Origin: a gamma proteobacterium symbiont of Ctena orbiculata
Lineage (GTDB): Bacteria; Pseudomonadota; Gammaproteobacteria; Chromatiales; Chromatiaceae
Assembly (NCBI GenBank): GCA_003094555.1
Contig: NATW01000095.1
Coordinates: forward strand, 1-37,697
Reading direction: 5' to 3'
Length of the DNA stretch: 37,697 bases
Shown here: in pieces, positions 24,576-29,599 of the stretch
Layout: each line of letters begins with the position of its first letter
Numbering within the stretch: the first letter of the stretch is position 1
The notes under the pieces: model-generated
Database searches by the model: none
The model's input: only the letters and a program-made list of their open reading frames with translations
Told to the model about the DNA's origin: nothing
Made by a program: the position numbers and the translations under genes

Positions 24576-24662
<87 letters not shown>

Positions 24663-27229: not shown

Positions 27230-28270
27230 ATGCAGCTATCCGACTTTAATTACCGCTTACCAGATGAACTCATCGCCCAGTTTCCACATAAGGAGCGAAG
27301 AGGGAGTCGCCTGCTTGGGTTGTTACAGGGGGAGTCACAACCGCAGGATCTGATGTTTTCTGACCTTCCCGCACTGCTGCAGCCTGGGGATTTGTTGGTG
27401 TTGAATAACACCCAGGTGATGCGTGCTCGACTGTATGGGAATAAACCGAGTGGCGGGAAAGTCGAAGTACTGATTGAACGTGTTATTGAGCCTGGATTGG
27501 CATTGGCGCATATCCGCGCCAGCAAATCGCCCAAACCTGGAACTTGGATTGAACTTGGCGATAGCGATCAATGTGTCGAGGTCACAGGTCGAGAAGGTGA
27601 TCTGTTTCTGCTTCGCTCCCAAGTTCATGACTTCTATCATCTGATGAATCATTTGGGTCACATGCCATTGCCCCCTTACATAGCCCGTGACGATAAATCC
27701 ATTGACATGGAACGATATCAAACGGTCTATGCACAAAGCCCTGGGGCGGTTGCCGCACCTACTGCCGGGCTGCACTTCGATCAAGAGATGCTGAATGAAC
27801 TATCCGAATTGGGTGTCAACCAGGCAACAGTGACCCTGCATGTAGGTGCTGGAACCTTTCAACCGGTAAGGGTTAAAAATCTCGATGAGCATATTATGCA
27901 TAAGGAGTATGTTGAGGTTGATGAGGCCGTATGCCAACAGGTTGTCGATACGCGTAAAAGGGGCGGGCGTGTGGTGGCCGTGGGCACAACTTGTGTGAGG
28001 AGTTTAGAGGCTGCATCAAGCGATGGTGCTATCAAACCCTATCAGGGGGATACCCGACTCTTTATCAAACCAGGTTATCGATTTCGCAGTGTGGATGCCA
28101 TGATAACCAATTTTCATCTACCCCAGTCCACCTTACTGATGTTGGTAGCGGCCTTTGCCGGTTATGATCGCATCATGAATGCCTATCAACATGCAATTGA
28201 AAAACGCTACCGTTTTTTCAGTTACGGAGATGCAATGTTCCTGACTCCCGCAAAGGAATCCAACGGGTAA
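27230..28270 (+). CDS. queA: S-adenosylmethionine:tRNA ribosyltransferase-isomerase QueA
   Basis: Transfers and isomerises the ribosyl part of SAM onto 7-aminomethyl-7-deazaguanine in tRNA to give epoxyqueuosine. 346 aa, the usual size. Family marks are FNYRLPDELIAQFPHKERRGSRLL at the start (abbreviated as pattern), LLVLNNTQVMRARL, GHMPLPPYIAR, YQTVYAQSPGAVAAPTAGLHF, LHVGAGTFQPVR and the C-terminal DAMITNFHLPQSTLLMLVAAF. The ATG at 27230 is chosen over an upstream in-frame start since MQLSDFNY is the family start; no ribosome site is visible. It is followed in the same direction by tgt, the preceding step of the pathway, with a 228-bp gap holding an antisense-strand small RNA candidate. Confidence 0.97.
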   Translation: MQLSDFNYRLPDELIAQFPHKERRGSRLLGLLQGESQPQDLMFSDLPALLQPGDLLVLNNTQVMRARLYGNKPSGGKVEVLIERVIEPGLALAHIRASKSPKPGTWIELGDSDQCVEVTGREGDLFLLRSQVHDFYHLMNHLGHMPLPPYIARDDKSIDMERYQTVYAQSPGAVAAPTAGLHFDQEMLNELSELGVNQATVTLHVGAGTFQPVRVKNLDEHIMHKEYVEVDEAVCQQVVDTRKRGGRVVAVGTTCVRSLEAASSDGAIKPYQGDTRLFIKPGYRFRSVDAMITNFHLPQSTLLMLVAAFAGYDRIMNAYQHAIEKRYRFFSYGDAMFLTPAKESNG

Positions 28271-28297
28271 AAAAAAGCGCGGCAAGGGTGCCGCGCT
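28269..28297 (-). terminator. Intrinsic terminator of the candidate sRNA
   Basis: Minus-strand stem AGCGCGGCA/TGCCGCGCT with a 4-nt loop followed by a T run (8 T including the stem-closing base). The plus strand after the same hairpin (AAACATATCC) has no T-run, so it does not terminate queA. The T-run overlaps the queA stop codon. Confidence 0.88.
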
Positions 28298-28362
28298 AAA
28301 CATATCCACCAAAGGAGGATGGAGGAGTGTAGAGTGCTGAACGATAATGATCAGCACATGAA
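28269..28362 (-). ncRNA. Candidate trans-acting small RNA with anti-Shine-Dalgarno motif (queA-tgt intergenic)
   Basis: A compact sRNA-like unit is read on the minus strand. A perfect -35 TTGACA (28387-28392) is followed at 17 bp by a poor -10 (GAAGAT, 28364-28369), or at 12 bp by a better TATAAG. Then comes a 7-bp stem GTGCTGA/TCAGCAC with a 10-nt loop (28334-28357). Next is a CU-rich stretch with CTCCTCCATCCTCC (28314-28327), complementary to Shine-Dalgarno AGGAGG/GGAGGAG. It ends in a 9-bp GC stem (28276-28297) and a T8 run. Length is about 90-95 nt; the exact 5' end is uncertain. No protein gene explains this terminator on the minus strand. The class resembles C-rich anti-SD sRNAs known in other proteobacteria, but I do not recognise a named family. 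Confidence 0.65.
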
Positions 28363-28489
28363 CATCTTCTTATATAGTGATGCTCTTGTCAAGAAAAAAT
28401 AAGGGATAACCCTAATTATGCCGAGTAATAACACTTAGGATATTCATTCGTAGGACGAGCAAGTTTACCGCTGTTCTTTAACGGTTTGA

Positions 28490-29599
<1,110 letters not shown>

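What the first reader, a model, noticed from the sequence alone, without database searches (positions are those of the whole stretch)
28269..28392. Unannotated anti-Shine-Dalgarno small RNA antisense-oriented between queA and tgt
Minus-strand TTGACA, a 5' stem-loop GTGCTGA/TCAGCAC, a CU-rich single-stranded stretch with two CCTCC motifs (CTCCTCCATCCTCC) and a strong intrinsic terminator with T8 form a complete sRNA-like unit of about 90-95 nt. No protein gene accounts for it. The CU-rich stretch is complementary to AGGAGG, so it could repress many mRNAs at their ribosome sites, as C-rich-loop sRNAs do in other proteobacteria. One copy of the motif may be masked by a TCCTCC/GGTGGA fold, leaving the first exposed. 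The weak spot is the -10: GAAGAT at 17 bp is poor and TATAAG is only 12 bp from TTGACA.
Basis: partly seen in the sequence, partly recalled or inferred. Interest (0 to 1): 0.75.

Follow-up and report, generated by a model that had tools for sequence, protein, structure and literature searches.

The report
Conserved anti-Shine-Dalgarno small RNA gene
Between two tRNA-modification genes of a sulphur-oxidising clam symbiont lies a small RNA gene, also found in many other sulphur bacteria, that looks built to block ribosome-binding sites; it resembles small RNAs already known from Neisseria, Burkholderia and Bordetella.

Summary
Minus-strand 28358-28269 should encode an RNA of about 90 nt: 5' stem-loop, linker, a hairpin presenting UCCUCCUU in its loop, terminator with U8. 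It is convergent with queA and divergent from tgt. A copy occurs in 21 of 22 genomes of the genus (Ca. Thiodiazotropha); the exception gave no tgt match. The queA linkage reaches Sedimenticola, Halochromatium and Thiohalocapsa records. In 46 queA-linked loci all 7 pairs of the 5' stem show two-sided changes; the middle hairpin does not covary. The doubted promoter is conserved. In the genus a palindrome, ATTAGGG-N4-CCCTAAT, keeps its distance to this promoter, not to tgt. Corrections: the second CCTCC, not the first, is exposed; two siblings exist. The locus fails Rfam gathering scores (RF02278: 34.3 against 50) but shares its core with a Gallionellaceae RNA that passes. Best reading: a new gammaproteobacterial member of the "double-hairpin"/NmsR kind of anti-SD sRNAs, repressing a subset of mRNAs. 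Targets, inducer and expression are unknown.

The parts
28399..28416 (.). palindrome ATTAGGGTTATCCCTTAT (genus consensus ATTAGGG-N4-CCCTAAT), probable operator of the sRNA promoter
   Evidence: Present at 20 of 20 genus loci, 33-35 nt from the -10 motif, distance to tgt 68-159 nt; best match in this genome (1 mismatch; two others have 2)
28387..28392 (-). -35 TTGACA
   Evidence: TTGAC upstream in 44 of 46 queA-linked loci, TTGACA in 35 (in L058, L100 and L127 it is half of an FNR-like box)
28364..28369 (-). -10 GAAGAT, 17 bp from the -35
   Evidence: GAAAAT or GAAACT at 17 bp in 24 of 46, shifted by one base in 9 more
28269..28358 (-). predicted sRNA, about 90 nt
   Evidence: R1 match 28359-28269, 89.5 bits; fold z -8.0; start inferred from the -10
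28334..28357 (-). 5' stem-loop GTGCTGA / TCAGCAC
   Evidence: 7 of 7 pairs with two-sided changes over 46 loci; folds in 46 of 46
28327..28333 (-). linker UCUACAC
   Evidence: Mostly unpaired in the ensemble, 0.42-1.0
28305..28326 (-). anti-SD hairpin UCCUCCA-UCCUCCUU-UGGUGGA; loop 28319-28312
   Evidence: Fold; sequence near invariant, so no covariation support
28276..28297 (-). intrinsic terminator stem-loop; U8 at 28276-28269
   Evidence: Scan; 3 of 8 pairs with two-sided changes
27230..28270 (+). queA, convergent neighbour
   Evidence: PF02547, E 2.7e-130
28499..29599 (+). tgt, divergent neighbour
   Evidence: PF01702, E 2.6e-165

Best explanation
A trans-acting sRNA gene. A sigma70-type promoter with an upstream palindrome, probably bound by a dedicated activator, makes an RNA of about 90 nt. 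Its middle hairpin presents UCCUCCUU, a mimic of the 16S rRNA 3' end; with the neighbouring CU-rich arm it pairs with purine-rich ribosome-binding sites of a subset of mRNAs and blocks translation, probably with Hfq on the U8 tail, while the 5' stem protects the end. Two siblings elsewhere in the genome share the anti-SD core under other promoters, so one targeting module can answer different signals. Shown by comparison: gene, 5' stem, promoter, palindrome, siblings. Inferred: transcription, Hfq binding, repression, activator, targets.
For: Fold z -8.0. 21 of 22 genus genomes. Always between queA and tgt in the 20 genus loci tested. Covarying 5' stem over 46 loci, 62 two-sided cells against 13.6 shuffled, alignment-free 46 of 46. 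Promoter. Palindrome tied to the promoter. Anti-SD tract in the loop. Likeness to RF02278 (34.3 bits, E 1.6e-5) and identical core in a gathering-level member. Hfq is encoded. Precedent for RBS repression: PMC5362039, PMC11722255, passages.
Against: No transcript data. Below every Rfam gathering score. The middle hairpin does not covary: 4 of 6 pairs never vary and the outer pair fails in 15 of 46. The first anti-SD tract is largely paired, unlike NmsR. Complementarity to ribosome-binding sites only equals that of the 16S tail (17 of 279 genes at 7 nt or more for both), so no target specificity is shown. Citrate synthase starts gave nothing striking.
Confidence: 0.75

Rival explanations
1. A cis element: the minus-strand transcript mainly acts on its own locus, as an antisense brake on queA read-through towards tgt; or the read-through queA 3' UTR, which carries the full complement, serves as a sponge of the sRNA.
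For: Convergent with queA and antisense to the queA-tgt spacer at 20 of 20 genus loci; the terminator has no U-run on the plus strand, so queA read-through would cover it.
Against: The conserved letters are the anti-SD core, which siblings keep far from queA; in Halochromatium or Thiohalocapsa-type loci tgt can lie 0.8-2.8 kb away.
Confidence: 0.12
2. A ribosome-directed or decoy RNA: the 16S-like loop competes for mRNA purine tracts in general, or binds a protein, so the main effect is global slowing of translation rather than regulation of chosen mRNAs.
For: The loop mimics the 16S tail; RF02278 RNAs inhibit E. coli growth (PMC4603805, passage); pairing potential equals that of the 16S tail.
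Against: Only 17 of 279 sampled genes have 7 nt or more; characterised relatives act on particular mRNAs (PMC5362039, PMC11722255, passages); S17 did not impair exponential growth of E. coli.
Confidence: 0.08
3. A small protein gene rather than an RNA gene.
For: A minus-strand frame of 74 codons starts with GTG at 28357.
Against: It runs through the terminator into antisense queA; loop and linker lengths differ among relatives by amounts that break the frame; what is kept is promoter, stem and U-run.
Confidence: 0.02

Closest known systems
RF02278 'toxic' / double-hairpin sRNAs (B. cenocepacia ncS03, ncS05, ncS27, ncS62; bdhR1; related B. pertussis S17)
   Same: CUCCUCCA...UCCUCC core with a hairpin closed by GGUGGA, then terminator with U-run; dispersed siblings; CU regions predicted to cover RBSs (PMC5688073, passages)
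   Different: 34.3 bits against a gathering score of 50; extra covarying 5' hairpin; queA-tgt locus; own palindrome; gammaproteobacterial
NmsRA/NmsRB (RF02877) of Neisseria
   Same: Three stem-loops, UC-rich anti-SD in the SL2 loop (PMC5362039, passages)
   Different: 23.7 bits against 52; here the first tract is mostly in a stem and copies are dispersed, not tandem
AniS (RF02274) of Neisseria
   Same: 22.2 bits, weak likeness; FNR-like boxes occur upstream of some relatives and of sibling C109
   Different: Below gathering score 50; the window's copy has a palindrome of another type
SisA-D (alphaR8) of Caulobacter
   Same: Sibling sRNAs with an anti-SD core that repress many mRNAs (PMC12559287, passages)
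   Different: Homology not tested; alphaproteobacterial

Membership tests
RF02278 (Betaproteobacteria_toxic_sRNA) | Score at or above Rfam gathering cut-off (50 bits) | tested here: not met
   34.3 bits, E 1.6e-5; 2 of 274 class genomes pass, 109 match at E <= 0.01; control genomes: 1 of 14 below cut-off, none above
RF02278 (Betaproteobacteria_toxic_sRNA) | CU-rich 5' part, hairpin, terminator with U-run over the full model | tested here: met
   Full-length match, model 1-64; identical 22-nt core in Gallionellaceae L090, 51.8 bits
RF02278 (Betaproteobacteria_toxic_sRNA) | Inhibits growth when overexpressed | not testable with these tools
   Needs an experiment
NmsR (RF02877) | Score at or above gathering cut-off (52 bits) | tested here: not met
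   NmsRb 23.7 bits
NmsR (RF02877) | anti-SD1 in a single-stranded linker and anti-SD2 in the SL2 loop | tested here: inconclusive
   Loop tract exposed, first tract mostly paired
Hfq-dependent trans-acting sRNA | Hfq encoded; intrinsic terminator with long U-run | tested here: met
   PF17209, E 8.2e-30; T8
Hfq-dependent trans-acting sRNA | Is transcribed, binds Hfq and pairs with target mRNAs | not testable with these tools
   No RNA data; RBS complementarity only

The most novel reading that the evidence does not exclude
RF02278 RNAs, S17, NmsR, AniS and this group are branches of one old beta/gammaproteobacterial anti-SD sRNA superfamily whose targeting core stays fixed while its promoters are rewired: FNR-type boxes in some lineages and siblings, and in Ca. 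Thiodiazotropha a near-private palindrome read by a dedicated regulator, making it a metabolic switch of lucinid symbionts.
Probability: 0.4. Interest if true: 0.65.

Novelty: new member of a known kind. Interest (0 to 1): 0.47.

Why it matters
It carries a class of sRNAs studied in Neisseria, Burkholderia and Bordetella into chemosynthetic symbionts and free-living sulphur oxidisers, where the listings of my searches showed no description. It offers an ortholog set with fixed synteny, a covariance model, and siblings with different regulatory sites, so it becomes testable how one anti-SD module is reused under different signals, and it gives a concrete regulatory RNA to look for in symbiont transcriptomes.

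Tried and rejected
Consensus scans alone: not significant. A further sibling at G000:C34 (33.5 bits): rejected, the sequence there has a terminator but no CCTCC core. TCA-cycle targets as for NmsR: 30 citrate synthase loci gave -5.0 to -16.0 kcal/mol with no background computed, and for sdhC my script, by my reading of the translations, took neighbouring frames in most rows, so nothing is claimed. RBS complementarity: 279 genes, start sites partly chosen by SD strength, so inflated; the 16S tail scores the same 17 of 279. FNR-like boxes: 17 of 156 upstream regions against 2.3 expected, but 6 of the 17 (L018, L019, L061, L104, L134, L143) take their first half from the -35. The MAFFT alignment A2 misplaced the 5' stems and was not used for pair counts. 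Of 51 queA-linked loci, 4 identical copies (L006, L008, L009, L015) and L110 (contig ends before the terminator) were dropped, leaving 46; four loci from records of genomes already held (L072, L095, L113, L128) were left out before that. The loci were fetched by an exact 22-mer, so invariance of the core in them is by selection; 5' stem, queA linkage and promoter were not selected on. A4 is fitted to model R1, which favours its structure; one search uses no alignment but only mononucleotide shuffles.

Full report
Identity and place. The window is contig C95 of an assembly of 4,068,818 bases in 193 contigs. Contigs of same-genus genomes have the lengths of named records: G015:C179 and L072 (4,940), G005:C1 and L095 (986,486), G003:C4 and L128 (334,702), all titled Candidatus Thiodiazotropha. 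queA (27230-28270, +) and tgt (28499-29599, +) flank the feature.

The element. On the minus strand: TTGACA 28392-28387, 17 bp, GAAGAT 28369-28364, predicted start near 28358, stem GTGCTGA/TCAGCAC within 28357-28334, linker, hairpin 28326-28305, terminator 28297-28276, U8 to 28269. Fold z -8.0, 0 of 200 shuffles as low. The second CCUCC (28318-28314) has unpaired probabilities 0.73-1.0, the first 0.01-0.75; the hairpin with the first tract in the stem scores -6.4 kcal/mol, the alternative -3.5.

Conservation in the genus. A DNA search found long matches at 72-85% identity in same-genus genomes. Covariance model R1 (11 sequences) finds a copy of at least 53.8 bits in 21 of 22 genus genomes. In the other, G006, the best match has 31.8 bits at C81, by sequence a sibling of the C173 type (L031), and that assembly gave no match to tgt. 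In all 20 genus loci tested with tblastn the element lies between queA and tgt, on the strand opposite to both. The core CTCCTCCATCCTCCTTTGGTGG is identical in 19 of these 20; L026 differs.

Wider. Loci with queA just downstream on the opposite strand include Sedimenticola, Halochromatium and Thiohalocapsa records; tgt is next door, or 0.8-2.8 kb away, or outside the locus. R1 matches 93 of 274 class genomes at E <= 0.001; RF02278 matches 109 of 274 at E <= 0.01, 2 of them over its cut-off. (That GTDB's Gammaproteobacteria include the former Betaproteobacteria is recalled.) An exact 22-mer scan stopped at its limit with 117 stretches; the 80 titles shown are nearly all gammaproteobacterial, many of sulphur oxidisers, one Gallionellaceae.

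Structure test. In 46 queA-linked loci aligned to R1, 96.6% of 1,004 cells pair (shuffled 91.0); 62 cells change on both sides (shuffled mean 13.6, 0 of 500 as high); slid structures reach at most 9. All 7 pairs of the 5' stem and 3 of 8 terminator pairs have two-sided changes. In the middle hairpin 4 of 6 pairs never vary, one varies on one side, and the outer U-A pair fails in 15 of 46; it rests on energy and precedent. Without alignment the 5' segment folds better than shuffles (p <= 0.04) in 46 of 46.

Promoter and operator. TTGAC is found in 44 of 46 (TTGACA in 35; in L058, L100 and L127 it is half of an FNR-like box); GAAAAT or GAAACT stands at 17 bp in 24 and one base further in 9. The palindrome ATTAGGG-N4-CCCTAAT lies upstream at 20 of 20 genus loci, 33-35 nt from the -10 motif, while its distance to tgt runs from 68 to 159 nt (the 159, L026, depends on the start codon chosen). 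With up to 2 mismatches 22 genomes hold 72 places (control, pattern read backwards: 10); 21 of the 72 are this locus, and so are all 7 perfect ones. It was not found upstream of the copies of other genera that I looked at by eye (output partly cut). That it binds an activator, centred near -50, is inference. Other lineages have FNR-like boxes: perfect TTGAC-N4-GTCAA in L058, L100 and L127, one mismatch in L161, and ATGAT-N4-ATCAA in L024, L110 and L146, by my count near -41 and -62, usual activator positions (recalled).

Siblings. Two further places in the genome match RF02278 at E <= 0.01: C173, upstream of ORFs that I read as rplM and rpsI, with TTGACA and TATATTAGATAAT; and C109, between ORFs that I read as purL and malQ, with the same CU tract but no GGUGG arm and an FNR-like TTGATATTTCTCAA. 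A candidate at C34 was rejected.

Known kinds. No gathering-level match in the window except tRNAs. With E-values: RF02278 34.3 bits (gathering 50), ncS54 24.0 (43), NmsRb 23.7 (52), AniS 22.2 (50). Of 20 related loci, one gave a gathering-level sRNA match: Gallionellaceae L090, 51.8 to RF02278, with the identical core. From passages of papers: NmsRs act through an anti-SD in a linker and one in the SL2 loop on TCA-cycle mRNAs (PMC5362039); the RF02278 RNAs of B. cenocepacia are dispersed double-hairpin homologues, and overexpressed ncS27 slows growth (PMC5688073; PMC4603805); S17 of B. pertussis represses a sigma54 regulator and has a 27-nt region conserved in Betaproteobacteria (PMC11722255); Caulobacter SisA-D have an anti-SD signature (PMC12559287); AniS is an anoxia-induced sRNA cited as under FNR control (PMC4423775). 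Searches: Thiodiazotropha with small RNA, 0 papers; queA, tgt and sRNA terms, 50 papers, 10 listed, none of the ten with queA; sulphur-bacterial genera with sRNA terms, 29 papers, 10 listed; bdhR1, 1 paper; RF02278, 4 papers. No listing described this group; the papers were not opened.

Mechanism. In 279 genes predicted from 400 kb of a same-species genome, 17 RBS windows have at least 7 nt of contiguous complementarity to the CU region, against 5 mid-ORF windows; the 16S tail also gives 17. A subset of mRNAs is eligible, but nothing here separates targets from strong SD sites in general. Hfq is encoded. Repression at the RBS is the likeliest mode by precedent; targets and inducing condition are unknown.

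Verdict. A real, well conserved sRNA gene: a new member of a known kind, in a group of bacteria where the listings showed none described.

Noticed in passing
L032:1890-2040 + (G000:C173): Sibling sRNA with the same promoter type, upstream of ORFs read as rplM-rpsI.
   Followed up: partly
L033:1930-2110 + (G000:C109): Sibling with the CU tract but no GGUGG arm, between ORFs read as purL and malQ, with an FNR-like box; similar places in G004 and G019 (L036, L049).
   Followed up: partly
L109:5782-6024 +: Three copies of the 22-mer core in a row in a Thiotrichaceae record.
   Followed up: no
L040 and L042, minus, about 1460-1600: Core-bearing RNAs of two other genera that share a different 5' part (CCAAAGGCAGTATCG...).
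   Followed up: no
window 24579-24662 -: tRNA gene about 3.6 kb from the sRNA; a tRNA lies within about 2 kb of the sRNA in L022, L024, L027, L030, L058, L073 and L077.
   Followed up: no
window 28310-28326 +: The plus strand here reads AAAGGAGGATGGAGGAG, the full complement of the CU tract, so queA read-through RNA could titrate the sRNA.
   Followed up: no
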